Assembly: GCF_036373705.1 (NCBI RefSeq)
Contig: NC_089867.1
Span: 21,812,323-21,876,322 of the forward strand
Origin: Amia ocellicauda
Taxonomy: Eukaryota > Chordata > Actinopteri > Amiiformes > Amiidae
Reading direction: 5' to 3'
DNA length: 64,000 bases
The notes beneath the pieces are model-generated. The model ran no database searches and was not told where the DNA came from. It worked only from the letters and a program-made list of their open reading frames with translations. A program made the position numbers and the translations under genes. This document shows positions 8,145 to 56,693 of this stretch, piece after piece. Positions within the stretch are counted from its first letter, which is position 1. Every line of letters begins with the position of its first letter.

Positions 8145-8499
8145 TAGCAACACGTCCACACACTGGTGTGAAATATGATTAGAAATATCCTGCCTTCACA
8201 GAAGACACACATTGTTAGAAGCTGCCCTGATTACTTCAGAGGCACAAGTGGAAACAGAAATAATCTCTTCCACACATACACACGTCTTGTATAACAAGGA
8301 GAACAGCAGTCATACTGTTGAGCACAGGTGTGTTGAATCGTGCATGTTCTTTCTGTCAAAGACAGAGCTCTTTAAAACCTTCCACACAGGCAGAAGAGGA
8401 AGGAAGACACTTCCTACACGCTGAGAATTACTGTCCATGCCCGTCTTAGACAGGCCGGTCCAATTCTGGGGTCTGAGTCCAGTGCCCGTCCGCAGGGCT

Positions 8500-9108
8500 C
8501 TACCAGGGCCGCCAGAGGGCGCCTTTAGCCGGACTCTCCTGTTTGATGGTGCTGTGGCGGGCTGGGGAGCTCAGCTGGGGCAGGGCGCTCGGACAGCTGG
8601 CCTTATCAGAGGACTGCTGCCCGCTCCGGAAATGGCTCAGCAGTCTTCGCCGGGACTCGGTCTTCACTTGGTCCCGGGACAGGAAGCGCACGATTTCTTG
8701 GGCACACCTGGAGTAGCCCTCGCCTGCAGCCGCAGGCCCGGAGGAGGCGCTAGCGAGCTGCTGCTGGCACCGCTGTCTCAGGTAGCACACCGTCATTTCC
8801 AGGATGTCGGCTTTCTCCAGCTTGGAGTCGGGCTGCTGGCTCAGGAAGTCGCCGGCCAGGAGAGACTTGAGCTGCTCGATGCTGCTGTTGATGCGATCTC
8901 TGCGCATTCGCTCAACCATCGGCTTTCTCAGCTGGAGAGACAAGACAAGACGTGGGTTAGTCATCAGGCTCTGGGAGGCAACCTGGATGAAATCACTGAC
9001 AGATGAAATCAGGGCATTTCTCCACAGGTCAGGTTCTCAACTTACTTTGTGGCTCAGGGTGGCGTGCTCCTTTGAGTATCCCATTGCTGCAGCGAGTGTC
9101 GGTGCCAT
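8500..9108 (-). CDS. hes5: HES5-type bHLH-Orange repressor, gene 1 (R75 variant)
   Basis: Exon 1 is 9046-9108 (MAPTLAAAMGYSKEHATLSHK) and exon 2 is 8500-8931, with a 114-bp GT-AG intron in phase 0. The product has 164 aa, close to the 166 aa I recall for human HES5. Residues 23-35 form the basic region with the family proline (RKPMVERMRRDRI, Pro25), about 36-73 the helix-loop-helix (KLEKADILEM in helix 2), about 92-122 the Orange domain (EGYSRCAQEIVRFL), and the protein ends in WRPW. Known role: nuclear Notch effector that binds N-box/class C sites as a dimer and recruits Groucho/TLE through WRPW, keeping neural progenitors undifferentiated. Residue 75 is Arg (CGG), as in gene 2 only. The start is chosen because ATG follows CCAGCC in a good context and sits 74 bp from the TATA box. 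Confidence 0.96.
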
Positions 9109-9480
9109 GGCTGGAGCTGGGCTGTAGTGCTCTCTGTGTAGAGTGAGTGTGACTGCTGCTGCTCTCGGCTCTGCTATTTATAGTCCCCAATCTGCATCCC
9201 AATGTGTGGGTCTCGGGCTCGTTGCAGTTTCTCACAGTCCGTAGCCAATGGGCGAGCTCGGGGAGACAATGGGGACGCTGGAATTGCCACATGCTCAATG
9301 AAGTGCTTATTGCCCGGGGACAATGGCCATGTCTCTGGGGAACAGGTGGAGGGGTGGGGCGATGGCGAGTGCCTCACGGAGCACTGTGTGAATCTGGGAA
9401 AGTGGTGACCCCCGTGCAGAGAGCAGATCTGCCGCCTGATGTTGGGATCAGTGATTCGTGTTTAGAGAGCACACGTGTGT
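9109..9480 (-). promoter_or_regulatory. hes5 gene 1 promoter: RBPJ site pair, TATA box, upstream CACGTG
   Basis: Reading on the minus strand: TATAAATA at 9175-9182 is 67 bp before the ATG. TGTGAGAA (9229-9236) and, facing it, GACCCACA (9205-9212) are separated by exactly 16 bp, the spacing described for paired Su(H)/RBPJ sites of Notch targets. The second site is degenerate in its last two bases. ATTGG/CCAAT (near 9245) and two ATTGTCCCC Sox-like stretches lie further upstream. CACGTG at 9472-9477 could bind HES itself. Confidence 0.8.
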
Positions 9481-10319
9481 AAGTGCACACGTCCTGCACC
9501 ATGAAGGCTTTAAAGCACCGAAGCCCACACTCGGCTCTGCATGCTGTTTGCAGTGAACACTGATGCTTCCAGGATTGTTCGATGTCTGTGAGATATTAAG
9601 CCGATGAGATCTGTTTGACCTCAGCCCCAGCTGCAGGTGTTGAACTGTATGTGCGCGGCTCGCTGGGGTATGATTATAATTACCCTGAATAAGCCCTAAT
9701 CGCACCCATGTACTTTTATTATGATCATTATTTATTCATTGAGCAGACGTCTTTTTAATAATGCCTTCCATATCATCCGCATATTGATTTCAAGGGTTTC
9801 CTGGTGACAGTAAAGAAAATAGAACATTCAGCACTTCGTATTAAATGGGAGAGAGAGAACAACATCAATAATAATAATAATAATAATATTAATAATAATT
9901 ATCATTATTATTATGATTTGTGTTCTTAGTGGATCAGTGCTGTTCATTCTTACATTATATATCTTTGAGAGCAAATACACAATTTAATGTTGCTTCACAT
10001 ATAAGCAACATGTCTATATTAAGCCACTCCTTTTTAAACTAACTAGCATTTTTATACAGTCAACTGGGCTCTGTGACTAAAGTACACCAAGTCTCCTGAG
10101 ATTACGAATGGACAGTTCAAAGCGATTGCTTGGTAATTCATGAACTGAAAAGATTGAATTAAAAGGTTGAGGTTAATCATTAAGATGAATTTATAAATTA
10201 GTCTTCAAATTGAAAATTATTAATTAAAATTCCCAGATTGCACCTCCGTATCCCAGATTGTGGCTGACAGGGTCTAATCAGTTATCACTGTCAGGGGGAT
10301 AGTCAGCAGATATGTGTCA

Positions 10320-11437
10320 ATCCACAGAGCAGTGTGTCCAGATGTCCCAGATGTGTCTCAGTCCTGCGGCTGCTGGGCTCTGTGAGTAGAGCTGCCCGGT
10401 CTTTCCCACACTGCGTCCTGTGTGCTGGGCTCCACACACAACAAAAGCAGCCAGGCGCGCTGAATGGGGCATTAGTGACGCCAATTGGCTCTGTATTGTG
10501 GGACGGGCAGCGCATGACGTCACACGCCATCTGGAGGGAAGGCCGATCAATGGCTGACATCTTATCAATACATCTGTACCTGTGCGCATCAACAGGGCCT
10601 CACAGCACCACAGTCAGTCATGACATCAGGACCGCAGCAGCTGACTGGGGGAGGCGGGGCTAATGGACAGGGAAACCCAGATTATACCTGTCGGGCAGGT
10701 GATCAGGTGACCTCAGCACACTGCGCTGTGATTGGCAGAGGAGGAGGAGAGTCTGACAGAGTGACACACAGGTATTGTGTGTCTTATTGTGCGACTGTTG
10801 TCCTCAAACACACAGCAATAGTAAAACAGCCTGATGACACTGCAGGCACTTCTGCTCTGAATGGTGTATCGAACACGTCCCCTCAGCCGTCCTCCTGCTC
10901 AGTGCTCAGCTTCTCCACACCTTCCTGCTCCCCGTGCCTTTGCCATGACTGAGCCACAGAGAGGGGCTCCCAGGTGCCCAGTGTCAGAGAGCAGCCCCCC
11001 CACCGTGTCCAGCCCCAGATAAAGGCCTCCAGATGCTGGTGGGGTTGAGGAGTCGTAATGGCCCTGGAACTGAGACTCTGCTCTCCAGAGCTTTCCCACA
11101 CTCTGCCCATTGAGAGAGCGACAATAGAAGTGTGCCGATTGAATGCTAATTTGGTTTCAAACCATCAGCCCCTGAAAATCCTCTAGAGGATAAAACTTGT
11201 TAGTTAAAGTGCTTTCATCAAGGGCCAGATGAACACACACATGTAGAGAGCATGGCGTCCAGCGGAAGTGTGTTAGTAGACATCAGCGCTCATGGGAAAT
11301 CGTCAGTAAAGCATGTGATATCAGCGTCTGAGACCCAGAGTAAATCATAAGCAATTCAAGACAATATAATGGAAACTCTTATGTACCAGTCTTATTCACT
11401 GAGAGCCATTATTCTTCTTATTATTATTCATCTTCTT

Positions 11438-11499
<62 letters not shown>

Positions 11500-11975
11500 A
11501 TGACTAATCAAAACTACTCAGCACTTTTAAAGTAATCTTTTGCATCCACCAAAATAATAGAATTATTTCCCTCCTCCATTATATAGCGCCTTTCACTCCA
11601 CCAGTGTTCTCAACAGCCTTTCCCAGTCACAGCCCAGCTGCTCAACGCTTTACTCTGAGAATCACACAATGCACCTGGGCCTGATATTTCATCAGCGATA
11701 TGAGACACACAGCAGAACCTCGTCAACATGCAACATGTGCCGTGTTTAATATGGCAACAAAACAGACCCCACCTCCCCCTCCCCCCATTCCTGGTGTGCA
11801 GCTCTGTGGGTCGACTCACTAGGGATTGTCCCCTCCGGCCCTGTGAGTGAGTTTTCCTCTGTTTCCCACACTCTGCCCATTCAGCACGTCCAATAGGGAG
11901 ACAATAGAAGTGTGTCTTATTACACATCGCGTTAGCGACGGTGTTTGATCTGCCATTGTGGGGTAGGGCAGCCAC
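10320..11975 (-). promoter_or_regulatory. Unit 1 distal modules E1, E2, E3
   Basis: E1 (10320-10571): TTTCCCACA RBPJ site at 10402-10410, GGCATTAGTGACG with a TAAT-like core, GTATTGTGGG, and a CRE TGACGTCA at 10515-10522. E2 (about 11000-11190): TTTCCCACA at 11092-11100, then GACAATAG and TGCTAATTTG. E3 (11815-11975): TTTCCCACA at 11862-11870, GACAATAG, TTACACATCGCGTTAG, CCATTGTGGGG. All three combine an RBPJ core with Sox-like ACAAT/ATTGT and homeodomain-like sites. The enhancer role is inferred from motif content and from conservation in and outside the array. Confidence 0.6.
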
Positions 11976-14189
11976 AGTGCGTGTCACTGTGCAATTTCAG
12001 GCAAACTTCTGAAACTTGTATCAGCTCAGCCTGATTTAGTGTCCAGCTGACTGTCCTGGATTACACCTCTTCAGCTTATAGTTTAGTAAACAAGGATGTA
12101 GAAACCAGCACAAGAGCAGCAGCATTGACTAATGCACTCAATTAACAAAATAATCTTCATTACCATGTTAAAACAGTACACTGAGACCAGGGTGGGCTGT
12201 AAAAACAAGGTACCAAATGAACAAGCATGCATACCTTTCATACACAGATTACTTCGATTAATAATCTAATACCAACACAGAGCTCCTATATACATCCACA
12301 CAGACATATATAGTGAGATACACAAGCTATAATTATTATTATTATCATTATTATTATTATTATTGTTCATCTGTTTTTTTATACAGTGTGAAGCTGCATC
12401 TTGAAGTTGACTGATTGTAATGATTTCTTATAATGATGATGATTTTGTATTTAACGTAGGAAGTCAATTAGACAATATCAGACAATTTAAATATTCATGT
12501 TTTGTCATCGTTTTCTCAGTGGATTCTCTATGGCGTAAGGAAGGAGTCCTTCTATGAGTCTTAAACTTCTCAACTACTGTCTGGTATTCTGTTCTAGTAC
12601 ATCACAGTTAAGTATATTTAAAAGGGGTAATGACGATGCAGAACATGTATTCAAGAAGATGATACTGGTCGCTCTTCTCATCGAGGACAATTAACTGTGT
12701 TAGTGCGTGATGTCATACTCGCAAGAAACCTAAACTGATTACTTTCTCTATTCAGTACCTTAAACAGCGCCAACAAAGCAGCATCCAAAAAGCAAATGAA
12801 GAAAGCACGATCAATATATTTATTACTTTCTAGTTTTACTAATTATGATGATATTAATAGGGTGAAATACGTATTTAGTGTTATGAAAATAAACGATTTA
12901 TCTAAATATACGTCACACTTTATTGATAGTCAGAGAGCCTCGATTAAATCACACATTATATATGTAATATGCAATGTAGTGTAATATGTAATGTGTATCA
13001 ATGTGGGTCTGATATAGAAATAAAGTAAATTAATCAATTTTGACCGTTAATTGCATTTTAAACATTGCCTTTCAATTTCCTGTACTGTAATAAATTCACA
13101 TGTGTATGTGATTCCTCATTATTATTACGATTGCATGTATTGGATTTAAAGAAGAGAAAACAAGGACATGTGAAGTTGATTTCATTTTTATTCTTCATGT
13201 TCTTCTTCTTGAAGTGAAATGCACAACAATTGAATATGATTCACAGAATCAGTACGGTTTCATGAGCACTGTATGTTCATGAACAGCTACAATAAGAGCC
13301 AAGGTGAGAGTCTGGGTCTACAAACACATGAGCCACACACTGAAAACAACATCACTAGCAAAACCTGAAGACATCTCCAAGACACAATATTCCATCACAC
13401 AGACACACCGTGGACAGTGTGAACACATTGAGAAACAGCCTTCATAGAAGACACACATATACTTGAATAATAAACACGCTAACCTTTCTCCGAGTCAGAA
13501 ATAATTATATTTCAATTGAATAAATACATATTTCTTATGTAACAAAGCAATGCTAATATAGGCCCATTACTGAAACATATTCATTATTAATCATTCATTA
13601 TAGTAGCCTAATGCTCAAACTTGAGCATCGCACACTGCTTTATTCAAAGCATAGGGAAGCACACACGTCTTGTGGAACAAGATACAATCATACCTTCTCG
13701 GAAGGCAAGTGTCTAAGATAGAAATTAATTTCTTTAAAACATGAAAAAACACATCAATGGACTAATGTGAAATGAAAACATCACATTTGTACTTTTCTGC
13801 AATCAGAAATAACCTTTGAGCTATGAAAAATTCATAGCAACACGTCCACACACTGGTGTGAAATATGATTAGAAATATCCTGCCTTCACAGAAGACACAC
13901 ATTGTTAGAAGCTGCCCTGATTACTTCAGAGGCACAAGTGGAAACAGAAATAATCTCTTCCACACATACACACGTCTTGTATAACAAGGAGAACAGCAGT
14001 CATACTGTTGAGCACAGGTGTGTTGAATCGTGCATGTTCTTTCTGTCAAAGACAGAGCTCTTTAAAACCTTCCACACAGGCAGAAGAGGAAGGAAGACAC
14101 TTCCTACACGCTGAGAATTACTGTCCATGCCCGTCTTAGACAGGCCGGTCCAATTCTGGGGTCTGAGTCCAGTGCCCGTCCGCAGGGCT

Positions 14190-14798
14190 CTACCAGGGCC
14201 GCCAGAGGGCGCCTTTAGCCGGACTCTCCTGTTTGATGGTGCTGTGGCGGGCTGGGGAGCTCAGCTGGGGCAGGGCGCTCGGACAGCTGGCCTTATCAGA
14301 GGACTGCTGCCCGCTCCGGAAATGGCTCAGCAGTCTTCGCCGGGACTCGGTCTTCACTTGGTCCCGGGACAGGAAGCGCACGATTTCTTGGGCACACCTG
14401 GAGTAGCCCTCGCCTGCAGCCGCAGGCCCGGAGGAGGCGCTAGCGAGCTGCTGCTGGCACCGCTGTCTCAGGTAGCACACCGTCATTTCCAGGATGTCGG
14501 CTTTCTCCAGCTTGGAGTCGGGCTGCTGGCTCAGGAAGTCGCCGGCCAGGAGAGACTTGAGCTGCTCGATGCTGCTGTTGATGCGATCTCTGCGCATTCG
14601 CTCAACCATCGGCTTTCTCAGCTGGAGAGGCAAGACAAGACGTGGGTTAGTCATCAGGCTCTGGGAGGCAACCTGGATGAAATCACTGACAGATGAAATC
14701 AGGGCATTTCTCCACAGGTCAGGTTCTCAACTTACTTTGTGGCTCAGGGTGGCGTGCTCCTTTGAGTATCCCATTGCTGCAGCGAGTGTCGGTGCCAT
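14190..14798 (-). CDS. hes5: HES5-type bHLH-Orange repressor, gene 2 (R75 variant)
   Basis: Exon 1 is 14736-14798 and exon 2 is 14190-14621. The protein is identical to gene 1, including Arg75 just after helix 2. The one difference I noticed in the transcribed core is a base in the intron close to the acceptor (GAGAGGCAAG for GAGAGACAAG on the plus strand). Confidence 0.96.
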
Positions 14799-15170
14799 GG
14801 CTGGAGCTGGGCTGTAGTGCTCTCTGTGTAGAGTGAGTGTGACTGCTGCTGCTCTCGGCTCTGCTATTTATAGTCCCCAATCTGCATCCCAATGTGTGGG
14901 TCTCGGGCTCGTTGCAGTTTCTCACAGTCCGTAGCCAATGGGCGAGCTCGGGGGGACAATGGGGAAGCTGGAATTGCCACATGCTCAATGAAGTGCTTAT
15001 TGCCCGGGGACAATGGCCATGTCTCTGGGGAACAGGTGGAGGGGTGGGGCGATGGCGAGTGCCTCACGGAGCACTGTGTGAATCTGGGAAAGTGGTGACC
15101 CCCGTGCAGAGAGCAGATCTGCCGCCTGATGTTGGGATCAGTGATTCGTGTTTAGAGAGCACACGTGTGT
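14799..15170 (-). promoter_or_regulatory. hes5 gene 2 promoter
   Basis: TATA box 14865-14872; RBPJ pair 14895-14926 (16-bp gap). Confidence 0.8.
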
Positions 15171-16010
15171 AAGTGCACACGTCCTGCACCATGAAGGCTT
15201 TAAAGCACCGAAGCCCACACTCGGCTCTGCATGCTGTTTGCAGTGAACACTGATGCTTCCAGGATTGTTCGATGTCTGTGAGATATTAATCCGATGAGAT
15301 CTGTTTGACCTCAGCCCCAGCTGCAGGTGTTGAACTGTATGTGCGCGGCTCGCTGGGGTATGATTATAATTACCCTGAATAAGCCCTAATCGCACCCATG
15401 TACTTTTATTATGATCATTATTTATTCATTGAGCAGACGTCTTTTTAATAATGCCTTCCATATCATCCGCATATTGATTTCAAGGGTTTCCTGGTGACAG
15501 TAAAGAAAATAGAACATTCAGCACTTCGTATTAAATGGGAGAGAGAGAACAACATCAATAATAATAATAATAATAATTATTATTATTATTATAATTATAA
15601 TAATTATAAAATCATCTATGTGGATCAGTGCTGTTCATTCTTACATTATATATCTTTGAGAGCAAATACACAATTTAATGTTGCTTCACATATAAGCAAC
15701 ATGTCTATATTAAGCCACTCCTTTTTAAACTAACTAGCATTTTTATACAGTCAACTGGGCTCTGTGACTAAAGTACACCAAGTCTCCTGAGATTACGAAT
15801 GGACAGTTCAAAGCGATTGCTTGGTAATTCATGAACTGAAAAGATTGAATTAAAAGGTTGAGGTTAATCATTAAGATGAATTTATAAATTAGTCTTCAAA
15901 TTGAAAATTATTAATTAAAATTCCCAGATTGCACCTCCGTATCCCAGATTGTGGCTGACAGGGTCTAATCAGTTATCACTGTCAGGGGGATAGTCAGCAG
16001 ATATGTGTCA

Positions 16011-17144
16011 ATCCACAGAGCAGTGTGTCCAGATGTCCCAGATGTGTCTCAGTCCTGCGGCTGCTGGGCTCTGTGAGTAGAGCTGCCCGGTCTTTCCCAC
16101 ACTGCGTCCTGTGTGCTGGGCTCCACACACAACAAAAGCAGCCAGGCGCGCTGAATGGGGCATTAGTGACGCCAATTGGCTCTGTATTGTGGGACGGGCA
16201 GCGCATGACGTCACACGCCATCTGGAGGGAAGGCCGATCAATGGCTGACATCTTATCAATACATCTGTACCTGTGCGCATCAACAGGGCCTCACAGCACC
16301 ACAGTCAGTCATGACATCAGGACCGCAGCAGCTGACTGGGGGAGGCGGGGCTAATGGACAGGGAAACCCAGATTATACCTGTCGGGCAGGTGATCAGGTG
16401 ACCTCAGCACACTGCGCTGTGATTGGCAGAGGAGGAGGAGAGCCTGACAGAGAGACACACAGGTATTGTGTGTCTTATTGTGCGACTGTTGTCCTCAAAC
16501 ACACAGCAATAGTAAAACAGCCTGATGACACTGCAGGCACTTCTGCTCTGAATGGTGTATCGAACACGTCCCCTCAGCCGTCCTCCTGCTCAGTGCTCAG
16601 CTTCTCCACACCTTCCTGCTCCCCGTGCCTTTGCCATGACTGAGCCACAGAGAGGGGCTCCCAGGTGCCCAGTGTCAGAGAGCAGCCCCCCCACCGTGTC
16701 CAGCCCCAGATAAAGGCCTCCAGATGCTGGTGGGGTTGAGGAGTCTTAATGGCCCTGGAACTGAGACTCTGCTCTCCAGAGCTTTCCCACACTCTGCCCA
16801 TTGAGAGAGCGACAATAGAAGTGTGCCGATTAAATGCTAATTTGGTTTCAAACCATCAGCCCCTGAAAATCCTCTAGAGGATAAAACTTGTTAGTTAAAG
16901 TGCTTTCATCAAGGGCCAGATGAACACACACATGTAGAGAGCATGGCGTCCAGTGGAAGTGTGTTAGAAGACATCAGCGCTCATGGGAAATCGTCAGTAA
17001 AGCATGTGATATCAGCGTCTGAGACCCAGAGTAAATCATAAGCAATTCAAGACAATATAATGGAAAACTCTTATGTACCAGTCTTATTCACTGAGAGCCA
17101 TTATTCCTCTTATTATTATTCATCTTCTTCTTCTTCTTCTTCTT

Positions 17145-17203
<59 letters not shown>

Positions 17204-17679
17204 ATGACTAATCAAAACTATTCAGCACTTTTAAAGTAATCTTTTGCATCCACCAAAATAATAGAATTATTTCCCTCCTCCATTATATAGCGCCTTTCAC
17301 TCCACCAGTGTTCTCAACAGCCTTTCCCAGCCACAGCCCAGCTGCTCAAAGCTTTACTCTGAGAATCACACAATGCACCTGGGCCTGATATTTCATCAGC
17401 GATATGAGACACACAGCAGAACCTCGTCAACATGCAACATGTGCCGTGTTTAATATGGCAACAAAACAGACCCCACCTCCCCCTCCCCCCATTCCTGGTG
17501 TGCAGCTCTGTGGGTCGACTCACTAGGGATTGTCCCCTCCGGCCCTGTGAGTGAGTTTTCCTCTGTTTCCCACACTCTGCCCATTCAGCACGTCCAATAG
17601 GGAGACAATAGAAGTGTGTCTTATTACACATCGCGTTAGCGACGGTGTTTGATCTGCCATTGTGGGGTAGGGCAGCCAC
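16011..17679 (-). promoter_or_regulatory. Unit 2 distal modules
   Basis: E1 16011-16262, E2 16691-16881, E3 17519-17679. RBPJ cores start at 16093, 16783 and 17566. Confidence 0.6.
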
Positions 17680-19892
17680 AGTGCGTGTCACTGTGCAATT
17701 TCAGGCAAACTTCTGAAACTTGTATCAGCTCAGCCTGATTTAGTGTCCAGCTGACTGTCCTGGATTACACCTCTTCAGCTTATAGTTTAGTAAACAAGGA
17801 TGTAGAAACCAGCACAAGAGCAGCAGCATTGAATAATGCACTCAATTAACAAAATAATCTTCATTACCATGTTAAAACAGTACACTGAGACCAGGGTGGG
17901 CTGTAAAAACAAGGTACCAAATGAACAAGCATGCATACCTTTCATACACAGATTACTTTGATTAATAATCTAATACCAACACAGAGCTCCTATATACATC
18001 CACACAGACATATATAGTGAGATACACAAGCTATAATTATTATTATTATCATTATTATTATTATTATTGTTCATCTGTTTTTTTATACAGTGTGAAGCTG
18101 CATCTTGAAGTTGACTGATTGTAATGATTTCTTATAATGATGATGATTTTGTATTTAACGTAGGAAGTCAATTAGACAATATCAGACAATTTAAATATTC
18201 ATGTTTTGTCATCGTTTTCTCAGTGGATTCTCTATGGCGTAAGGAAGGAGTCCTTCTATGAGTCTTAAACTTCTCAACTACTGTCTGGTATTCTGTTCTA
18301 GTACATCACAGTTAAGTATATTTAAAAGGGGTAATGACGATGCAGAACATGTATTCAAGAAGATGATACTGGTCGCTCTTCTCATCGAGGACAATTAACT
18401 GTGTTAGTGCGTGATGTCATACTCGCAAGAAACCTAAACTGATTACTTTCTCTATTCAGTACCTTAGACAGCGCCAACAAAGCAGCAACCAAAAAGCAAA
18501 TGAAGAAAGCACGATCAATATATTTATTACTTTCTAGTTTTACTAATTATGATGATATTAATAGGGTGAAATACGTATTTAGTGTTATGAAAATAAACGA
18601 TTTATCTAAATATACGTCACACTTTATTGATAGTCAGAGAGCCTCGATTAAATCACACATTATATATGTAATATGCAATGTAGTGTAATATGTAATGTGT
18701 ATCAATGTGGGTCTGATATAGAAATAAAGTAAATTAATCAATTTTTACCGTTAATTGCATTTTAAACATTGCCTTTCAATTTCCTGTACTGTAATAAATT
18801 CACATGTGTATGTGATTCCTCATTATTATTACGATTGCATGTATTGGATTTAAAGAAGAGAAAACAAGGACATGTGGAGTTGATTTCATTTTTATTCTTC
18901 ATGTTCTTCTTCTTGAAGTGAAATGCACAACAATTGAATATGATTCACAGAATCAGTACGGTTTCATGAGCACTGTATGTTCATGAACAGCTACAATAAG
19001 AGCCAAGGTGAGAGTCTGGGTCTACAAACACATGAGCCACACACTGAAAACAACATCACTAGCAAAACCTGAAGACATCTCCAAGACACAATATTCCATC
19101 ACACAGACACACCGTGGACAGTGTGAACACATTGAGAAACAGCCTTCATAGAAGACACACATATACTTGAATAATAAACACGCTAACCTTTCTCCAAGTC
19201 AGAAATAATTATATTTCAATTGAATAAATACATATTCTTATGTAACAAAGCAATGCTAATATAGGCCCATTACTGAAACATATTAATAATGAATCATTCA
19301 TTATAGTAGCCTAATGCTCAAACTTGAGCATCGCACACTGCTTTATTCAAAGCATAGGGAAGCACACACGTCTTGTGGAACAAGATACAATCATACCTTC
19401 TCAGAAGGCAAGTGTCTAAGATAGAAATTAATTTCTTTAAAACATGAAAAAACACATCAATGGACTAATGTGAAATGAAAACATCACATTTGTACTTTTC
19501 TGCAATCAGAAATAACCTTTGAGCTATGAAAAATTCATAGCAACACGTCCACACACTGGTGTGAAATATGATTAGAAATATCCTGCCTTCACAGAAGACA
19601 CACATTGTTAGAAGCTGCCCTGATTACTTCAGAGGCACAAGTGGAAACAGAAATAATCTCTTCCACACATACACACGTCTTGTATAACAAGGAGAACAGC
19701 AGTCATACTGTTGAGCACAGGTGTGTTGAATCGTGCATGTTCTTTCTGTCAAAGACAGAGCTCTTTAAAACCTTCCACACAGGCAGAAGAGGAAGGAAGA
19801 CACTTCCTACACGCTGAGAATTACTGTCCATGCCCGTCTTAGACAGGCCGGTCCAATTCTGGGGTCTGAGTCCAGTGCCCGTCCGCAGGGCT

Positions 19893-21259: not shown

Positions 21260-21368
<109 letters not shown>

Positions 21369-22903: not shown

Positions 22904-22934
<31 letters not shown>

Positions 22935-44445: not shown

Positions 44446-44493
<48 letters not shown>

Positions 44494-44913: not shown

Positions 44914-46741
44914 ATCCACAGAGCAGTGTGTCCAGATGTCCCAGATGTGTCTCAGTCCTGCGGCTGCTGGGCTCTGTGAGTAGAGCTGCCCGGTCTTTCC
45001 CACACTGCGTCCTGTGTGCTGGGCTCCACACACAACAAAAGCAGCCAGGCGCGCTGAATGGGGCATTAGTGACGCCAATTGGCTCTGTATTGTGGGACGG
45101 GCAGCGCATGACGTCACACGCCATCTGGAGGGAAGGCCGATCAATGGCTGACATCTTATCAATACATCTGTACCTGTGCGCATCAACAGGGCCTCACAGC
45201 ACCACAGTCAGTCATGACATCAGGACCGCAGCAGCTGACTGGGGGAGGCGGGGCTAATGGACAGGGAAACCCAGATTATACCTGTCGGGCAGGTGATCAG
45301 GTGACCTCAGCACACTGCGCTGTGATTGGCAGAGGAGGAGGAGAGTCTGACAGAGTGACACACAGGTATTGTGTGTCTTATTGTGCGACTGTTGTCCTCA
45401 AACACACAGCAATAGTAAAACAGCCTGATGACACTGCAGGCATTTCTGCTCTGAATGGTGTATCGAACACGTCCCCTCAGCCGTCCTCCTGCTCAGTGCT
45501 CAGCTTCTCCACACCTTCCTGCTCCCCGTGCCTTTGCCATGACTGAGCCACAGAGAGGGGCTCCCAGGTGCCCAGTGTCAGAGAGCAGCCCCCCCACCGT
45601 GTCCAGCCCCAGATAAAGGCCTCCAGATGCTGGTGGGGTTGAGGAGTCGTAATGGCCCTGGAACTGAGACTCTGCTCTCCAGAGCTTTCCCACACTCTGC
45701 CCATTGAGAGAGCGACAATAGAAGTGTGCCGATTAAATGCTAATTTGCTTTCAAACCATCAGCCCCTGACAGGCCTCTAGAGGATAAAACTTGTTTGTTA
45801 AATATGCTTTAATCAAGGGCCAGATGAACACACACATGTAGAGAGCATGTAGAGAGTAAATCATAAGCAATTCAAGACAATGTAATGTAATCATTATATT
45901 TAAAGGCTCTGCAAGGACATCAGACATATTGAGCAGAGATACAGTGCTATGCTCTGAGTTGCGTCTTATGAATGATTATAAGCTCTGTCAGGATATGCTG
46001 CTGTTGGACTCTGACTTTCATTTGGGATTCCTCAAGTACTGAGGGGAGCAATGAAAGGTTGTAGGAACTTCAAAACATCTAGAAGAATGCACTATACTTC
46101 AACACTGGACTGTTTAACTCCCCAAACACTGTATTATGACATTCTTAACTCTCCCTATCCTTGTTGTGTTTCCTGTCACAAGTTAAGTTGTGATTTTGCC
46201 TTTTGATGTGACTCCTCAGAGCTGATGAAGTGCACATCAAGAGGGTGTCACTACCACAACAGTGCCCCAAAATGAGCATATCACCCAACAGTTCTGTTTC
46301 AGATCCCAAGGAATGAACACTGCAGACAGAATCTCCCTCCTCCATTATATAGCGCCTTTCACTCCACCAGTGTTCTCAACAGCCTTTCCCAGCCACAGCC
46401 CAGCTGCTCAAAGCTTTACTCTGAGAATCACACAATGCACCTGGGCCTGATATTTCATCAGCGATATGAGACACACAGCAGAACCTCGTCAACATGCAAC
46501 ATGTGCCGTGTTTAATATGGCAACAAAACAGACCCCACCTCCCCCTCCCCCCATTCCTGGTGTGCAGCTCTGTGGGTCGACTCACTAGGGATTGTCCCCT
46601 CCGGCCCTGTGAGTGAGTTTTCCTCTGTTTCCCACACTCTGCCCATTCAGCACGTCCAATAGGGAGACAATAGAAGTGTGTCTTATTACACATCGCGTTA
46701 GCGACGGTGTTTGATCTGCCATTGTGGGGTAGGGCAGCCAC
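44914..46741 (-). promoter_or_regulatory. Unit 7 distal modules
   Basis: E1 44914-45165, E2 45594-45784, E3 46581-46741, with the type B segment between E2 and E3. Confidence 0.6.
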
Positions 46742-48600
46742 AGTGCGTGTCACTGTGCAATTTCAGGCAAACTTCTGAAACTTGTATCAGCTCAGCCTGA
46801 TTTAGTGTCCAGCTGACTGTCCAGGATTACACCTCTTCAGCTTATAGTTTAGTAAACAAGGATGTAGAAACCAGCACAAGAGCAGCAGCATTGACTAATG
46901 CACTCAATTAACAAAATAATCTTCATTACCATGTTAAAACAGTACACTGAGACCAGGGTGGGCTGTAAAAACAAGGTACCAAATGAACAAGCATGCATAC
47001 CTTTCATACACAGATTACTTTGATTAATAATCTAATACCAACACAGAGCTCCTATATACATCCACACAGACATATATAGTGAGATACACAAGCTATAATT
47101 ATTATTATTATCATTATTATTATTATTATTGTTCATCTGTTTTTTTATACAGTGTGAAGCTGCATCTTGAAGTTGACTGATTGTAATGATTTCTTATAAT
47201 GATGATGATTTTGTATTTAACGTAGGAAGTCAATTAGACAATATCAGACAATTTAAATATTCATGTTTTGTCATAGTTTTCTCAGTGGATTCTCTATGGC
47301 GTAAGGAAGGAGTCCTTCTATGAGTCTTAAACTTCTCAACTACTGTCTGGTATTCTGTTCTAGTACATCACAGTTAAGTATATTTAAAAGGGGTAATGAC
47401 GATGCAGAACATGTATTCAAGAAGATGATACTGGTCGCTCTTCTCATCGAGGACAATTAACTGTGTTAGTGCGTGATGTCATACTCGCAAGAAACCTAAA
47501 CTGATTACTTTCTCTATTCAGTACCTTAGACAGCGCCAACAAAGCAGCATCCAAAAAGCAAATGAAGAAAGCACGATCAATATATTTATTACTTTCTAGT
47601 TTTACTAATTATGATGATATTAATAGGGTGAAATACGTATTTAGTGTTATGAAAATAAACGATTTATCTAAATATACGTCACACTTTATTGATAGTCAGA
47701 GAGCCTCGATTAAATCACACATTATATATGTAATATGCAATGTAGTGTAATATGTAATGTGTATCAATGTGGGTCTGATATAGAAATAAAGTAAGTTAAT
47801 CAATTTTTTACCTTTAATTGCATTTTAAACATTGCCTTTCAATTTCCTGTACTGTAATAAATTCACGTGTGTATGTGATTCCTCATTATTATTACGATTG
47901 CATGTATTGGATTTAAAGAAGAGAAAACAAGGACATGTGACGTTGATTTCATTTTTATTCTTCATGTTCTTCTTCTTGAAGTGAAATGCACAACAATTGA
48001 ATATGATTCACAGAATCAGTACGGTTTCATGAGCACTGTATGTTCATGAACAGCTACAATAAGAGCCAAGGTGAGAGTCTGGGTCTACAAACACATGAGC
48101 CACACACTGAAAACAACATCACTAGCAAAACCTGAAGACATCTCCAAGACACAATATTCCATCACACAGACACACCGTGGACAGTGTGAACACATTGAGA
48201 AACAGCCTTCATAGAAGACACACATATACTTGAATAATAAACACGCTAACCTTTCTCCAAGTCAGAAATAATTATATTTCAATTGAATAAATACATATTC
48301 TTATGTAACAAAGCAATGCTAATATAGGCCCATTACTGAAACATATTAATAATGAATCATTCATTATAGTAGCCTAATGCTCAAACTTGAGCATCGCACA
48401 CTGCTTTATTCAAAGCATAGGGAAGCACACACGTCTTGTGGAACAAGATACAATCATACCTTCTCAGAAGGCAAGTGTCTAAGATAGAAATTAATTTCTT
48501 TAAAACATGAAAAAACACATCAATGGACTAATGTGAAATGAAAACATCACATTTGTACTTTTCTGCAATCAGAAATAACCTTTGAGCTATGAAAAATTCA

Positions 48601-49037
48601 TAGCAACACGTCCACACACTGGTGTGAAATATGATTAGAAATATCCTGCCTTCACAGAAGACACACATTGTCAGAAGCTGCCCTGATTACTTCAGAGGCA
48701 CAAGTGGAAACAGAAATAATCTCTTCCACACATACACACGTCTTGTATAACAAGGAGAACAGCAGTCATACTGTTGAGCACAGGTGTGTTGAATCGTGCA
48801 TGTTCTTTCTGTCAAAGACAGAGCTCTTTAAAACCTTCCACACAGGCAGAAGAGGAAGGAAGACACTTCCTACACGCTGAGAATTACTGTCCATGCCCGT
48901 CTTAGACAGGCCGGTCCAATTCTGGGGTCTGAGTCCAGTGCCCGTCCGCAGGGCTCTACCAGGGCCGCCAGAGGGCGCCTTTAGCCGGACTCTCCTGTTT
49001 GATGGTGCTGTGGCGGGTTGGGGAGCTCAGCTGGGGC
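48601..49037 (-). repeat. Array unit 8, truncated
   Basis: Only the downstream flank, 3' UTR and last 82 bases of the coding exon remain. The unit breaks off at 49,037 and continues as plus-strand hes5 promoter sequence. Confidence 0.95.
48956..49037 (-). pseudogene. hes5 fragment: last 26 codons of a truncated minus-strand copy
   Basis: The reverse strand gives the final part of the protein from about PQLSSPARH to WRPW and the stop codon, then the 3' UTR leftwards. Everything upstream is missing because the sequence switches at 49,037 into a plus-strand hes5 promoter. There is no start, intron or bHLH. Confidence 0.95.
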
Positions 49038-49129
49038 TATAAATAGATTGGGGACTATAAATAGCAGAGCCGAGAGCAGCAGCAGTCACACTCACTCTAC
49101 ACAGAGAGCACTACAGCCCAGCTCCAGCC
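49038..49129 (+). promoter_or_regulatory. hes5 gene 8 truncated promoter with duplicated TATA box
   Basis: The normal TATAAATA is at 49056-49063. A second TATAAATA at 49038-49045 forms the breakpoint itself and precedes GATTGGGGAC, where intact promoters have ATGCAGATTGGGGAC. No RBPJ pair, CCAAT or Sox-like sites remain. Confidence 0.85.
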
Positions 49130-49738
49130 ATGGCACCGACACTCGCTGCAGCAATGGGATACTCAAAGGAGCACGCCACCCTGAGCCACAAAGTAAGTTG
49201 AGAACCTGACCTGTGGAGAAATGCCCTGATTTCATCTGTCAGTGATTTCATCCAGGTTGCCTCCCAGAGCCTGATGACTAACCCACGTCTTGTCTTGTCT
49301 CTCCAGCTGAGAAAGCCGATGGTTGAGCGAATGCGCAGAGATCGCATCAACAGCAGCATCGAGCAGCTCAAGTCTCTCCTGGCCGGCGACTTCCTGAGCC
49401 AGCAGCCCGACTCCAAGCTGGAGAAAGCCGACATCCTGGAAATGACGGTGTGCTACCTGAGACAGCAGTGCCAGCAGCAGCTCGCTAGCGCCTCCTCCGG
49501 GCCTGCGGCTGCAGGCGAGGGCTACTCCAGGTGTGCCCAAGAAATCGTGCGCTTCCTGTCCCGGGACCAAGTGAAGACCGAGTCCCGGCGAAGACTGCTG
49601 AGCCATTTCCGGAGCGGGCAGCAGTCCTCTGATAAGGCCAGCTGTCCGAGCGCCCTGCCCCAGCTGAGCTCCCCAGCCCGCCACAGCACCATCAAACAGG
49701 AGAGTCCGGCTAAAGGCGCCCTCTGGCGGCCCTGGTAG
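49130..49738 (+). CDS. hes5: HES5-type bHLH-Orange repressor, gene 8 (inverted, promoter truncated)
   Basis: Exon 1 is 49130-49192 and exon 2 is 49307-49738, with the intron at 49193-49306 (GTAAGT...CTCCAG). The coding sequence is intact and gives the majority protein. Upstream, the match to other promoters ends about 82 bp before the ATG: the RBPJ pair and CCAAT region are gone. The gene faces away from the truncated minus-strand fragment next door. Its transcription under Notch control is therefore doubtful unless more distant modules suffice. The downstream flank matches the 3' UTR of all other copies. Confidence 0.95.
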
Positions 49739-50093
49739 AGCCCTGCGGACGGGCACTGGACTCAGACCCCAGAATTGGACCGGCCTGTCTAAGACGGGCA
49801 TGGACAGTAATTCTCAGCGTGTAGGAAGTGTCTTCCTTCCTCTTCTGCCTGTGTGGAAGGTTTTAAAGAGCTCTGTCTTTGACAGAAAGAACATGCACGA
49901 TTCAACACACCTGTGCTCAACAGTATGACTGCTGTTCTCCTTGTTATACAAGACGTGTGTATGTGTGGAAGAGATTATTTCTGTTTCCACTTGTGCCTCT
50001 GAAGTAATCAGGGCAGCTTCTAACAATGTGTGTCTTCTGTGAAGGCAGGATATTTCTAATCATATTTCACACCAGTGTGTGGACGTGTTGCTA

Positions 50094-50308
50094 TGATTTT
50101 TTTATAGTTTAAATCTTATTTCTGATTCCAGAAAAATACGAGAGTAATGTTAATGTCCTGACATATGTAATGTTTTAAGCTGTGTGCTCTTCTAACAGCT
50201 CATGGTGTGTGCCTGTTGCATGGCAACATGACTGCTTTATTTTGCTAAGCAATGATTTGTACACGATCCTGAGATCCAGGAACATCTCAACTGTGCTGTC
50301 TGATGTGA
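50094..50308 (+). repeat. 3' flank shared by genes 8 and 9 but not by the array
   Basis: From about 50094 the sequence keeps matching the gene 9 flank (57045-57265), including AAAAATACGAGAGTAATG and TGTTGCATGGCAACA, while array units differ. The match ends after GTCTGATGTGAAGACA. Genes 8 and 9 therefore share a more recent origin in this flank. Confidence 0.8.
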
Positions 50309-52835: not shown

Positions 52836-52964
52836 CTCATGCTGTACACAGAAGAGCTTTTAAGAGTGTGGTTTAGGAGATTAGTATCATAATAAAACTT
52901 TCAGATGTCTGTCTTGACTTGCCTCCCTCACTGCAGTCCAGATGGTGCGCTCAGAGTGAGGCTC

Positions 52965-53125
52965 CCCTTCCCCACAATGGGAGATCAAACACCGTTGCTA
53001 ACGTCATATGTAATAGGACACACTTCTTTTGTCTCCCCATTGAAGACGCTGAATGGGCAGAGTGTGGGAAACAGAGGAAAACTCACTCACAGGGCCTGGA
53101 GGGGACAATCCCTACAGAACGGCAC
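52965..53125 (+). promoter_or_regulatory. E3 module of gene 9 (reverse orientation to the array)
   Basis: Matches the reverse complement of the array E3: CCCACAATGGGAGATCAAAC, GCTAACGTCATATGTAATAG, CTGAATGGGCAGAG, then TGTGGGAA at 53063-53070 and ACTCACTCACAGGGCC. Point changes are visible (for example CTTTTGTCTCC for CTATTGTCTCC), so this copy is older than the array copies. Confidence 0.65.
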
Positions 53126-53129
53126 ACAG

Positions 53130-54085
53130 ATCTCAGCACCGCACCTTACATCTTGCTGTACTAAAGACCGAGGGAGTGGTTTACTTATTAACTGAGCAAA
53201 AAGAAAAACAGGGAACAGCACAGTGAAAGTGACAGGCCACCATAATACATCACTAAGGATGATCAGAGCACTGGAGCTGATATTGAATTGTGACGGCTAA
53301 AGCCTTGTCTTGCAGGGGGCTCAGCGGGAGAAGAGACAGTTTTTAAACCTCTGGACAGAATGCAGTAGATGACAAGAACTTACCATGTTTGGGTTTTAAA
53401 ATGGAAATGTATATACTGAGCATATGTGGCTATTCAGTTTTACCAATCACACTTCAGAGATTAAAGAACACACGGTTGATTTTTCATAACTTTAGCAGCA
53501 TAAAAACTGTTTTAAATATCCATACAATACTTAAAATAGTATAAAACCACACAGTAAGGCAGTTCTTGTGTCATCTTAATAAAAAACTACCATTAAACTG
53601 GCATATATGTTTTGGCTGTAGAGGAAATATGAAAGAAAAACATTAATGCAAACCATGTAAAACTGCAGAATGAATGCTAATGTTGTCAACCTTCATTGGT
53701 GCTTTGAACACTGCACACTCAATTAAAGAAATAAGGAAGAGGAGGATCACTATTTAGACCTTCAGTAAAAACCGGAAATTACACAATCTTTCAATTAAAG
53801 CATGGAGATTTTGAAAACACTCTGTGGGCTTTTAACCAAGAGCAGTTAATAGATTCTCAAGTAGAGCAATGTGTATCAGCCCTGTCCCCTGTGTCAGACT
53901 GAAAGCAGTGCTGGATTATGTGCCGCGCTCAATTGCTATCAGGGTAAAACTGTACTCAGCTTCTCAATTAAAATATACTTAACTACAGTGTCTGATCCCA
54001 TGAGTGCTGCAATTAATTAACACTTTTCAAACGCATCTCATTCTTTCTAAATGTTTGCGTTTATCTGGCCCTTGATTAAAGCATA
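53130..54085. other. Spacer between E3 and E2 of gene 9, nothing recognised
   Basis: AT-rich with no coding frame and no visible match to the array spacers. Confidence 0.5.
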
Positions 54086-54089: not shown

Positions 54090-54300
54090 ACTAACAAGTT
54101 TCATCCTCTAGAGGCTTGTCAGGGGCTGATGGTTTGAAAGCAAATTAGCATTTAATCGGCACACTTCTATTGTCGCTCTCTCAATGGGCAGAGTGTGGGA
54201 AAGCTGTGGAGAGCAGAGTCTCAGTTCCAGGGCCATTACGACTCCTCAACCCCACCAGCATCTGGAGGCCTTTATCTGGGGCTGGACACGGTGGGGCGGG
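54090..54300 (+). promoter_or_regulatory. E2 module of gene 9
   Basis: Reverse complement of array E2: AAATTAGCATTTAATCGGC, CTATTGTCGC, TGTGGGAAA at 54194-54202. Carries GAGGCTTGTCAGGGGCTG like the type B units (GACAGGCCTC), not the type A form (GAAAATCCTC). Confidence 0.65.
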
Positions 54301-54589
54301 CAAAGGCACGGTGAGCAGGAAGGTGTGGAGAAGCACAGGGAGGAACTGAACAGGAGGACGGCTGAGGGGACGTGTTCGATACACCATTCAGATACATCAT
54401 TGCTAATGACACCTTATATGGAGCAGTACTATCAAAATAATGTAAAGAATAATCTAATCTAGTGATTCCAGCACTAACAGTTATTGTAAAATGTGGCATC
54501 TCTCTTAAATTCTGCTCTGAATGTAGTTTCTTGCAAATAAATAAAAAAGCCTGCACTTGCTAGCTGTCATGCATGAGCGACAGATATTA

Positions 54590-54947
54590 TTGATAAGATG
54601 TCAGCCATTGATCGGCCTTCCCTCCAGATGGCGTGTGACGTCATGCGCTGCCCGTCCCACAATACAGAGCCAATTGGCGTCACTAATGCCCCATTCAGCG
54701 CGCCTGGCTGCTTTTGTTGTGTGTGGAGCCCAGCACACAGGACGCAGTGTGGGAAAGACCGGGCAGCTCTACTCACAGAGCCCAGCAGCCGCAGGACTGA
54801 GACACATCTGGGACATCTGGACACACTGCTCTGTGGATGTCCACACTGTGCTGACAGAATAGAGGAGGCATGTTAAACAGTCTGTTTCCAGTCACTGGTC
54901 ACTCATTAATACCCCTGACTGTAGCACTTCATAACAACATGATGCTG
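54590..54947 (+). promoter_or_regulatory. E1 module of gene 9
   Basis: About 250 bp are essentially identical to the reverse complement of array E1, including CRE TGACGTCA, ATTGGCGTCACTAATGCC and GCAGTGTGGGAAAGACC. After 54840 it continues into about 100 bp shared only with the orphan E1 at 61.4 kb. Confidence 0.7.
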
Positions 54948-54949
54948 TA

Positions 54950-55737
54950 AAGTAGAGGACAGGGAGTTTTAATCACACACTGAGTATTAAGACATATGGT
55001 TCAGTGACCAGTCACCCGAGATCAATGAATCAATCAGCGGTGTTTTCAGTGAATTAATTAGAATATTGTGGTCAGAAATGTCAAACATCCCAAAAATTCA
55101 ACACTTGATCAAGGCTGGAAGAGATTTATGTTCCTTTATTAATCAAATGACAGTCTGATTGCTATCTCAATAGTTCACTCAATATCTTTTAGTCAATGTA
55201 TCTGTATCTTATAACCATTCCTAGAGAAGTCAAAGTTCAAGTCACATATTCAAACCTATTGTTCAATTACCCTGTTTCCCTTCAGCAGCACTGCAAAAGC
55301 AATTTTCAAAGGCTTCCTCCACTAGGCAATTACTAACACCTTGTCTCCGAATTTCTTGGAAGTAAGCAATTTCAAGGCATGGCATTAAAAAGCTGTGATA
55401 CTAAACATACAGAAGAAAAATACAAAATGACAAAGCTGCAATGTCATAAAAACTTTAGATCGAATCAAATGGAATCAATAAAATGTCTGTCTAAAATATC
55501 CTACAGTGAATGTCTAACAAATATATTGGACACTGTGGTTTGGACACTGGACGTGTTGTTTCCCAGACCAATCTACATGACACAGTAGATTTGTAGAGGA
55601 AGCTAGATGTTCCACAGATTTAAAACAATGCTTAGAATGTGAGAAGTCCTAAGAGTTATTGCGGACGGAGGCATTGCTTCTGTAGAGAAGTATGCCACAC
55701 TAGTACTTTCCAATTACAACTGCTGTGCTGCTTCAGT
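54950..55737. other. Spacer between E1 and promoter of gene 9
   Basis: No match to the corresponding array spacer and no gene recognised. Confidence 0.5.
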
Positions 55738-56084
55738 GTCACTGATCCCAACATCAGGCGGCAGATCTGCTCTCTGCACGGGGGTCACCACTTTCCCAGA
55801 TTCACACAGTGCTCCGTGAGGCACTCGCCATCGCCCCACCCCTCCACCTGTTCCCCAGAGACATGGCCATTGTCCCCGGGCAATAAGCACTTCATTGAGC
55901 ATGTGGCAATTCCAGCTTCCCCATTGTCCCCCCGAGCTCGCCCATTGGCTACGGACTGTGAGAAACTGCAACGAGCCCGAGACCCACACATTGGGATGCA
56001 GATTGGGGACTATAAATAGCAGAGCCGAGAGCAGCAGCAGTCACACTCACTCTACACAGAGAGCACTACAGCCCAGCTCCAGCC
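55738..56084 (+). promoter_or_regulatory. hes5 gene 9 promoter
   Basis: RBPJ pair 55957-55988 (TGTGAGAA, 16 bp, GACCCACA); TATAAATA 56011-56018; CCCATTGGC upstream. Homology with the array promoters starts at about 55738, just short of the CACGTG found in the array. Confidence 0.82.
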
Positions 56085-56693
56085 ATGGCACCGACACTCG
56101 CTGCAGCAATGGGATACTCAAAGGAGCACGCCACCCTGAGCCACAAAGTAAGTTGAGAACCTGACCTGTGGAGAAATGCCCTGATTTCATCTGTCAGTGA
56201 TTTCATCCAGGTTGCCTCCCAGAGCCTGATGACTAACCCACGTCTTGTCTTGTCTCTCCAGCTGAGAAAGCCGATGGTTGAGCGAATGCGCAGAGATCGC
56301 ATCAACAGCAGCATCGAGCAGCTCAAGTCTCTCCTGGCCGGCGACTTCCTGAGCCAGCAGCCCGACTCCAAGCTGGAGAAAGCCGACATCCTGGAAATGA
56401 CGGTGTGCTACCTGAGACAGCAGTGCCAGCAGCAGCTCGCTAGCGCCTCCTCCGGGCCTGCGGCTGCAGGCGAGGGCTACTCCAGGTGTGCCCAAGAAAT
56501 CGTGCGCTTCCTGTCCCGGGACCAAGTGAAGACCGAGTCCCGGCGAAGACTGCTGAGCCATTTCCGGAGCGGGCAGCAGTCCTCTGATAAGGCCAGCTGT
56601 CCGAGCGCCCTGCCCCAGCTGAGCTCCCCAGCCCGCCACAGCACCATCAAACAGGAGAGTCCGGCTAAAGGCGCCCTCTGGCGGCCCTGGTAG
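56085..56693 (+). CDS. hes5: HES5-type bHLH-Orange repressor, gene 9
   Basis: Exon 1 is 56085-56147 and exon 2 is 56262-56693. The protein equals gene 3. It has a complete proximal promoter from about 55738 and its own E3, E2 and E1 modules at 53.0, 54.2 and 54.7 kb. The intervening spacer sequence is unlike that of the array, so this copy is not a recent array member in its flanks even though the gene body is near-identical. Confidence 0.96.

What the first reader, a model, noticed from the sequence alone, without database searches (positions are those of the whole stretch)
8145..56693. Nine near-identical hes5 genes in a 7-minus / 2-plus arrangement beside pank4
Across nine copies of a 164-aa protein, only residues 75 and 137 differ, while several silent changes are scattered among the copies. 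The genes are intact and head-to-tail except for the last two, which are inverted. This indicates recent amplification together with selection and/or gene conversion on the coding region. Family expansion of HES5-type genes is known in fish (her4, her15) and frogs, but this unit structure with its regulatory modules deserves description.
Basis: partly seen in the sequence, partly recalled or inferred. Interest (0 to 1): 0.75.

Follow-up and report, generated by a model that had tools for sequence, protein, structure and literature searches.

The report
Nine-copy hes5 gene array beside pank4
A fish chromosome carries nine nearly identical, intact copies of a brain-development gene of the Notch pathway (hes5), most with their own set of likely control switches; this is a fresh example of a gene expansion already known in other fish and frogs, with unusually clear traces of how it was copied.

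Summary
Nine intact two-exon hes5 genes (164 aa, WRPW end) lie beside pank4, seven on the minus and two on the plus strand. Only codons 75 and 137 change the protein; four changes are silent.

Copies 1-7 are tandem units of 5.69-5.88 kb, 0.17-1.07% apart outside one block that exists in two versions, order a a a b a b b. This fits unequal crossing-over, including a two-unit duplication. Coding sequence is not specially homogenised among these seven. Copies 8 and 9 differ: 1052 and 1266 bp match unit 3 perfectly, with abrupt ends in diverged surroundings, best read as ectopic gene conversion. Each unit and copy 9 carries four CSL sites; eight of nine promoters keep a paired site with a 16-nt gap, copy 8 lost it.

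A pank4-linked hes5 cluster is published for spotted gar (four genes), and similar expansions for zebrafish and stickleback: a new member of a known kind. Function (extra Notch-driven repressor dosage) is inferred.

The parts
28..471 (-). pank4 exon (Fumble/pantothenate kinase domain) with ORF surroundings; neighbour of the hes5 array
   Evidence: Pfam PF03630 E 1.8e-22; PDB pantothenate kinase hits; the name pank4 itself is recalled
8136..13825 (-). Tandem unit U1 (a-type) with hes5 copy 1 at 8500-9108
   Evidence: self-BLAST, gene model, MAFFT, block
13826..19528 (-). Tandem unit U2 (a-type) with hes5 copy 2 at 14190-14798
19529..25268 (-). Tandem unit U3 (a-type) with hes5 copy 3 at 19893-20501
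25269..31119 (-). Tandem unit U4 (b-type) with hes5 copy 4 at 25633-26241
31120..36836 (-). Tandem unit U5 (a-type) with hes5 copy 5 at 31484-32092
36837..42714 (-). Tandem unit U6 (b-type) with hes5 copy 6 at 37201-37809
42715..48591 (-). Tandem unit U7 (b-type) with hes5 copy 7 at 43079-43687
11254..11565 (.). a-version of the replacement block in U1 (312 bp); equivalents in U2, U3, U5 (322-328 bp)
28394..28876 (.). b-version of the replacement block in U4 (483 bp), identical in U6 (39971-40453) and U7 (45849-46331)
48592..49037 (-). Truncated tenth hes5 copy: 3' region and the last 26 codons plus stop (48956-49036), one residue different from the intact copies
49037..49045 (.). Inversion junction with a short filler that repeats the TATA sequence; copy 8 has TATAAATA at -92 and -74 and no CSL paired site
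49045..50096 (+). 1052-bp tract with zero mismatches to U3 (1-4 to the other units), containing hes5 copy 8 (49130-49738)
55739..57004 (+). 1266-bp tract with zero mismatches to U3, containing hes5 copy 9 (56085-56693) and its proximal promoter
52957..53133 (+). Copy 9 module M1 (CSL at 53063), 87% identical to M1 of U3
54141..54296 (+). Copy 9 module M2 (CSL at 54194), one mismatch to M2 of U3 over 156 bp
54589..54838 (+). Copy 9 module M3 (CSL at 54748), one mismatch to M3 of U3 over 250 bp
9228..9236 (-). Promoter CSL site of copy 1, first half of a paired site with a 16-nt gap; the same in copies 1-7 and 9
10402..10410 (-). Module M3 CSL site in U1 (one per unit)
11092..11100 (-). Module M2 CSL site in U1 (one per unit)
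11862..11870 (-). Module M1 CSL site in U1 (one per unit)
59405..61678 (+). 'Ghost' regulatory unit with no hes5 gene found behind it in the window: M0 (59405-59481), M1 (60402-60587), M3 (61348-61678)
63945..64000 (-). C-terminal end of a second-type hes5 gene (B'); 63789-64000 is an inverted relative (92% over 212 bp) of the end of gene B

Best explanation
This is a recent local amplification of one member of the pank4-linked hes5 cluster of a fish. Shown: a 5.7-5.9 kb unit holding the gene, a TATA/inverted-CCAAT/CSL promoter and three distal CSL modules is repeated seven times head to tail; a block present in two versions (a a a b a b b) and the unit tree fit stepwise unequal crossing-over, including copying of the U3-U4 pair to U5-U6 and then of U6 to U7. 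Two inverted copies and a truncated tenth copy mark the right edge. Inferred: copies 8 and 9 were overwritten by array sequence through ectopic gene conversion, because long mismatch-free tracts end abruptly in diverged flanks. Inferred from promoter anatomy and family knowledge: the genes are direct Notch targets (CSL paired site with a 16-nt gap) encoding a bHLH-Orange-WRPW repressor, and the array raises the dosage of one near-identical protein rather than making new ones. Copy 8, without a paired site, probably depends on the modules it shares with divergently placed copy 7, or is weakly expressed.
For: Nine open copies, same protein but for two residues. Units differ by substitutions and microsatellite length, so they are not one copy pasted by the assembler; the window has no N. 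The b block is identical in three units that are not all adjacent; a tree without block and shoulder groups U3+U5 (100), U6+U7 (90) and, weakly, U4+U6+U7 (71). Zero mismatches to U3 over 1052 bp (copy 8) and 1266 bp (copy 9); a run as long as that in the pooled copy 9/U3 alignments arose in 0 of 10000 permutations. CSL sites: 38 versus 4.5 expected, four in each of seven units and four at copy 9, not independent since they are copies. Paired-site gap of exactly 16 nt in 8 of 9 copies, the gap Notch dimers prefer. Genome probes list the array only here (lower bounds).
Against: No expression, read-depth or population data. The paired-site partner differs from the consensus at two bases, and the isolated mammalian Hes5 paired site did not show dimer dependence in one study. 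Mismatch-free tracts at copies 8 and 9 could be very recent insertions of copied segments. In zebrafish, loss of both Notch-dependent hes5-type clusters (nine genes) did not affect the neural stem and progenitor cells studied (section title and passages), so a dosage benefit is not obvious. The selection signal rests on six changes.
Confidence: 0.8

Rival explanations
1. Assembly artefact: one or a few real copies were multiplied by the assembler, or haplotypes were joined end to end.
For: U6 and U7 differ at only 9 of 5354 sites, and the U4/U6/U7 trio is very close. A 7.5 kb stretch right of the window reads N, cause unknown.
Against: The units have private or subgroup substitutions, different microsatellite lengths and two block versions. 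Haplotype joining would not give seven distinct units. The window holds no N, and no further unit is listed on other contigs (lower bound).
Confidence: 0.07
2. Concerning copies 8 and 9 only: no gene conversion; they were created by recent duplicative insertion of an array segment into a region that already held older modules.
For: Abrupt tract ends; copies 8 and 9 share about 200 bp of 3' flank with one difference, so copy 8 was at least partly a segmental copy of copy 9.
Against: At copy 9 the order M1-M2-M3-core and the M3-to-core spacing (884 versus 899 bp) match the array while the spacers do not align, which fits an old unit whose core was overwritten; an insertion would have to land in register.
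Confidence: 0.3
3. Strong selection on every base of core and modules, without conversion, keeps them identical.
For: The identical islands coincide with the promoter-gene core and modules M2 and M3; 181 bp of M3 have one mismatch even at the ghost unit.
Against: Zero mismatches to U3 also across intron, synonymous sites and about 310-360 bp after the stop codon, while the array units themselves vary at 4 of 116 synonymous sites and one intron site.
Confidence: 0.06

Closest known systems
Spotted gar hes5 cluster on LG25 next to pank4 (PMC8320183: parts 1-2 of 4 read, passages of the rest)
   Same: pank4-linked; three of four genes with two coding exons; listed lengths 163, 159, 159, 162 aa (LG25-1 to -4) resemble A 164, B 159 and C 162 aa here by my gene models, with B' unseen.
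   Different: One A-length gene listed for gar against nine here; whether the older gar assembly collapsed an array is unknown. I did not see the order relative to pank4, and no gar sequence could be compared.
Zebrafish her4.1-4.5, chr 23 (PMC3396596 passages; PMC10112928 passages)
   Same: Tandem hes5 homologs with almost identical proteins and 5' UTRs; Notch-dependent.
   Different: Five copies; placed between emc1 and icmt, not beside pank4; no unit anatomy, two-version block or conversion tracts in the passages I saw.
Stickleback-specific HES5 cluster of nine sequences (PMC3396596 passages)
   Same: Same number of lineage-specific hes5 genes in one fish.
   Different: Reported from a tree; identity and arrangement not given in the passages seen.
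Xenopus hes5.1 and hes5.3 clusters (PMC8320183) and chicken Hes5-1 to -3 beside Pank4 (PMC3201213 passages)
   Same: Clustered hes5 genes; the hes5.1-type cluster and the chicken cluster are pank4-linked.
   Different: Diverged members as far as the text seen tells; almost all frog genes have three coding exons; no near-identical array described there.

Membership tests
HES5 / her4-her15 type genes | bHLH domain followed by Orange domain | tested here: met
   Pfam HLH E 3e-15 and Hairy_orange E 6.7e-6 for copy 1, the copy scanned; the others differ at no more than two residues
HES5 / her4-her15 type genes | C-terminal WRPW | tested here: met
   9 of 9 copies
HES5 / her4-her15 type genes | Proline in the basic region (hallmark recalled) | tested here: met
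   LRKPMVERMRRDRIN in 9 of 9
HES5 / her4-her15 type genes | Two coding exons, as reported for many ray-finned fish hes5 genes | tested here: met
   One 114-nt GT-AG intron in 9 of 9, by sequence, no transcript seen; expectation
HES5 / her4-her15 type genes | Linkage to pank4 (hes5.1-type locus) | tested here: met
   Fumble-domain exon at 28-471; its identity as pank4 among pantothenate kinases is recalled
HES5 / her4-her15 type genes | Phylogenetic placement in the hes5 clade | not tested
Direct Notch (CSL paired-site) target genes | Head-to-head CSL sites with a 15-17 nt gap | tested here: met
   16-nt gap, partner with two differences from the consensus, in 8 of 9 copies; absent in copy 8
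Direct Notch (CSL paired-site) target genes | Activation by Notch intracellular domain | not testable with these tools
   needs reporter or expression data
Homogenised tandem array (concerted evolution) | Mismatch-free tracts with abrupt ends among copies | tested here: met
   copies 8 and 9
Homogenised tandem array (concerted evolution) | Silent coding sites less variable than noncoding sites in copies 1-7 | tested here: not met
   4/116 synonymous versus 69/4588 noncoding, p 0.10, in the opposite direction

The most novel reading that the evidence does not exclude
Homogenisation in this cluster acts in islands that coincide with function. The promoter-gene core and distal Notch modules M2 and M3 are kept nearly identical between the array and copy 9, and M3 even at a gene-less ghost unit, while the spacers between them no longer align. 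The modules of all three gene types also share one grammar: a Sox-like YWTTGT, an ATTGG/GAATGG element, a CSL site and often a half-site partner, with the Sox-like element mostly 35-36 bp, or about 10 bp less, before the CSL start on the same strand. The cluster would then evolve as a set of interchangeable Notch modules rather than as separate genes.
Probability: 0.2. Interest if true: 0.65.

Novelty: new member of a known kind. Interest (0 to 1): 0.45.

Why it matters
Hes5-type repressors help keep neural progenitors undifferentiated (family knowledge), so a natural nine-copy series of one near-identical Notch target, with regulation apparently intact in eight and a natural promoter loss in one, is a ready-made test of whether dosage or regulation drives hes5 expansions. 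The two-version block and the sharp identical tracts let the copying history be read unusually clearly. If the module grammar holds in other species, it would give a testable rule for how the Notch input of hes5 genes is built.

Tried and rejected
Retrogene origin: suspected because the second exon is continuous through the bHLH; rejected, since intron 1 is present and two coding exons are the form reported for many ray-finned fish. Coding-specific conversion in copies 1-7: not supported. Species: not settled. Gene lengths like gar's and a single hes5-type locus listed in 988 Mb (lower bound) suggest a gar-like non-teleost, but no sequence of a named fish was compared. Age in years: not attempted, no mutation rate. 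Left-flank search against U3: the script stopped with an error at that step and was not rerun; the left-flank CSL modules rest. The Sox-like word alone (YATTGTB) is also commoner in the window than in shuffles, 145 versus 88, mostly because the units repeat, so I rely on its placement next to CSL sites. No structure prediction was run. The 557 nt after copy 9 fold only mildly better than shuffles (z -2.47, 3 of 100 shuffles as good). Literature searches with conversion terms gave nothing on hes5 arrays in what was listed: 12 of 1358 papers shown and one paper.
Full report
What is there. The window is G000:C24:21812323-21876322 of a 988 Mb genome in 385 contigs. Each is 609 bp from ATG to stop with one 114-nt GT-AG intron and encodes 164 aa ending in WRPW. 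Pfam finds the HLH and Hairy_orange domains in copy 1; the only PDB sequence found for the protein is HES-1. Six coding sites vary: codons 75 (R/Q) and 137 (A/T) change the protein, codons 81, 108, 124 and 158 do not; one intron site varies. A pantothenate kinase exon, which I read as pank4, lies on the left on the minus strand.

A truncated tenth minus copy (last 26 codons plus stop and 3' region, 48592-49037, one residue different) is fused to copy 8. At the right edge the last 17 codons of another hes5-type gene, B', appear on the minus strand (63945-64000); 212 bp there match the end of gene B, inverted, at 92%. Genes B and C lie at window-equivalent 72433-72867 and 81965-82426, both plus; a broken hes5 relic lies at about 75601-75830. 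The stretch 64001-71500 reads N, withheld or a gap, so B' cannot be judged whole. A 2.3 kb unit probe gives 23 matches in the genome: full length in the seven units, parts of copies 8 and 9, modules and genes B and C, plus two short ones of 53 and 56 bp on C7 and C11. A gene C protein probe lists 11 matches, all here: the nine copies, B and C. The tool scores only its best candidates (14 and 34), so I can say only that no second hes5-type locus was listed.

Unit anatomy. Units U1-U7 begin at 8136, 13826, 19529, 25269, 31120, 36837 and 42715 and are 5690-5878 bp long. Outside one block they differ by 0.17-1.07%. The block, between modules M2 and M1, exists in two versions: a (312-328 bp, in U1, U2, U3, U5) and b (483 bp, identical in U4, U6, U7); only a 38-bp piece aligns between them. 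Ten variable sites unite U3 and U5; nine unite U4, U6 and U7, but seven of these lie within about 100 columns of the block. A tree without block and shoulder gives U3+U5 support 100, U6+U7 90 and U4+U6+U7 only 71. The simplest history is duplication of the U3-U4 pair into U5-U6, then of U6 into U7. Of 528 pairs of informative sites 173 are incompatible, and near sites are more compatible than shuffled ones (p 0.011), which suggests some exchange between units; some sites lie next to simple repeats, so alignment error may add to this.

Selection or conversion? Among the nine CDS, 4 of 116 synonymous and 2 of 376 nonsynonymous sites vary (Fisher p 0.03); noncoding sites of the seven units vary at 69 of 4588, neither above synonymous (p 0.10) nor significantly above nonsynonymous (p 0.17). 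Copies share ancestry, so these p values are rough. Silent sites are not depleted, so for copies 1-7 recent copying is enough. Copies 8 and 9 differ in kind. Copy 8 matches U3 without a mismatch over 49045-50096, then has 12 mismatches in 55 bp; copy 9 matches over 55739-57004, then has 17 mismatches and two gaps in 100 bp, and just upstream of 55739 nothing aligns. Over copy 8's tract the other six units differ at 1-4 sites, so U3 is the closest copy. The longest identical run, 1275 in the pooled string of 2204 aligned bases (nine from the neighbouring piece), was not reached in 10000 permutations; uneven constraint is a confounder. Upstream of copy 9 the modules M1, M2 and M3 lie in array order, M2 and M3 with one mismatch each over 156 and 250 bp, M1 at 87%, while most sequence between does not align. 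I read this as an old unit whose core, and perhaps modules, were overwritten from the array. Copy 8 also shares about 200 bp of 3' flank with copy 9 with one difference, but matches the array, not copy 9, in the 40-odd bp just before it, so it is a mosaic.

Regulation. CSL consensus sites (YGTGRGAAM) number 38 in the window against 4.5 expected (largest shuffle 15): four in each of seven units, four at copy 9, six in the flanks; the repeats are copies of each other. In copies 1-7 and 9 the promoter has TGTGAGAA at -128 and a head-to-head partner GACCCACA at -104, a gap of 16 nt, an inverted CCAAT at -141 and TATA at -74; copy 1 has two substitutions further upstream. Gene C has the same 16-nt gap; gene B does not show that partner. 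Notch dimers prefer 16 nt, and the mammalian Hes5 site is described as a canonical site with a cryptic partner (PMC7685452, passages). Copy 8 has no CSL pair; its upstream is the truncated copy, and a filler at the junction gives it a second TATAAATA at -92. Its nearest CSL module is M1 of U7, about 2.5 kb away.

A shared module grammar. In 81 kb of the locus with the extra array units left out, 23 of 27 CSL sites have a Sox-like YWTTGT within 60 bp upstream on the same strand, against a background of 12%; the three control placements (upstream on the other strand, downstream on either strand) give 3 of 27 each. Of the 23, 14 start 35-36 bp before the CSL start, four 24-26 bp, five elsewhere (19-47 bp). 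16 of 27 have ATTGG, AATGG or ATTGA in the 25 bp upstream (background 7.6%) and 15 of 27 a partner half-site at a spacer of 10-22 (background 1.4%); 12 of 27 lack the half-site. The 27 include related modules (M3 three times, for example), so binomial p values overstate independence, and I chose the motifs after looking at the sequence. A strict string (TTGT, 19-32 bases, GAGTGTGGGAAA) has 21 matches in the genome, 12 here (seven of them the repeated M1) and nine elsewhere, against eight for the reversed control pattern, so outside the locus it is at chance level. That Sox and NF-Y proteins bind these elements is inference, the motif names are recalled.

Compared with what is known. Kuretani et al. 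(PMC8320183; parts 1-2 of 4 read, passages of the rest) describe pank4-linked hes5 genes in frogs, chicken, gecko, coelacanth and spotted gar, with four genes in gar of 163, 159, 159 and 162 aa. Here A is 164, B 159 and C 162 aa by my gene models; I did not see the gar gene order relative to pank4. Zhou et al. (PMC3396596, passages) report five almost identical tandem zebrafish hes5 genes and a nine-member stickleback-specific clade, and propose a dosage benefit. In zebrafish, deletion of both hes5-type clusters did not affect the neural stem and progenitor cells studied (PMC10112928, section title and passages), which speaks against a simple need for dosage. I saw no paper on conversion in hes5 arrays in the listings of my searches (only 63 and 64 used conversion terms), in a library that lacks most subscription journals.

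Verdict. Real, intact, and a new member of a known kind, with clear marks of tandem duplication by unequal crossing-over and probable ectopic conversion. The dosage role is inferred. The most novel part is the island-like identity and common module grammar, which needs other species and reporter tests.

Noticed in passing
729-1632 and 4349-5254: Two Tc1-like transposon copies, 95.4% identical, with DDE_3 matches; by my reading of the exons one lies in a pank4 intron and one upstream of its first exon.
   Followed up: partly
8425-9006 and the equivalent place in the eight other copies: A 193-aa antisense stop-to-stop ORF overlaps each of the nine hes5 copies; probably a by-product of codon composition.
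   Followed up: no
3' regions, e.g. 8286-8298, 13669-13681, 49940-49952, 56895-56907, 57572-57584: Short hairpin motifs CTTGTTNNACAAG (43 matches with one mismatch allowed, 2.1 expected; near-palindromic, so most places count on both strands) and GTCTTCTNTGAAG (20 matches, all exact, 0.5 expected, all on the sense strand of the neighbouring gene) recur downstream of the genes; many are repeats of the unit. Possible 3' UTR elements; the 557 nt after copy 9 fold slightly better than shuffles (z -2.47, 3 of 100 as good).
   Followed up: partly
6130-6138 and 6915-6923: Two more Sox-like/CSL modules between pank4 and copy 1, perhaps the remains of an older regulatory unit.
   Followed up: partly
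59405-61678: A regulatory unit (M0, M1, M3) with no hes5 gene found behind it before the window ends; 181 bp of M3 differ from U3 at one site.
   Followed up: partly
L010, window-equivalent 75601-75830: Broken hes5 relic on the minus strand between genes B and C.
   Followed up: no
58143-58499: A 357-bp CA-rich microsatellite array right of copy 9.
   Followed up: no
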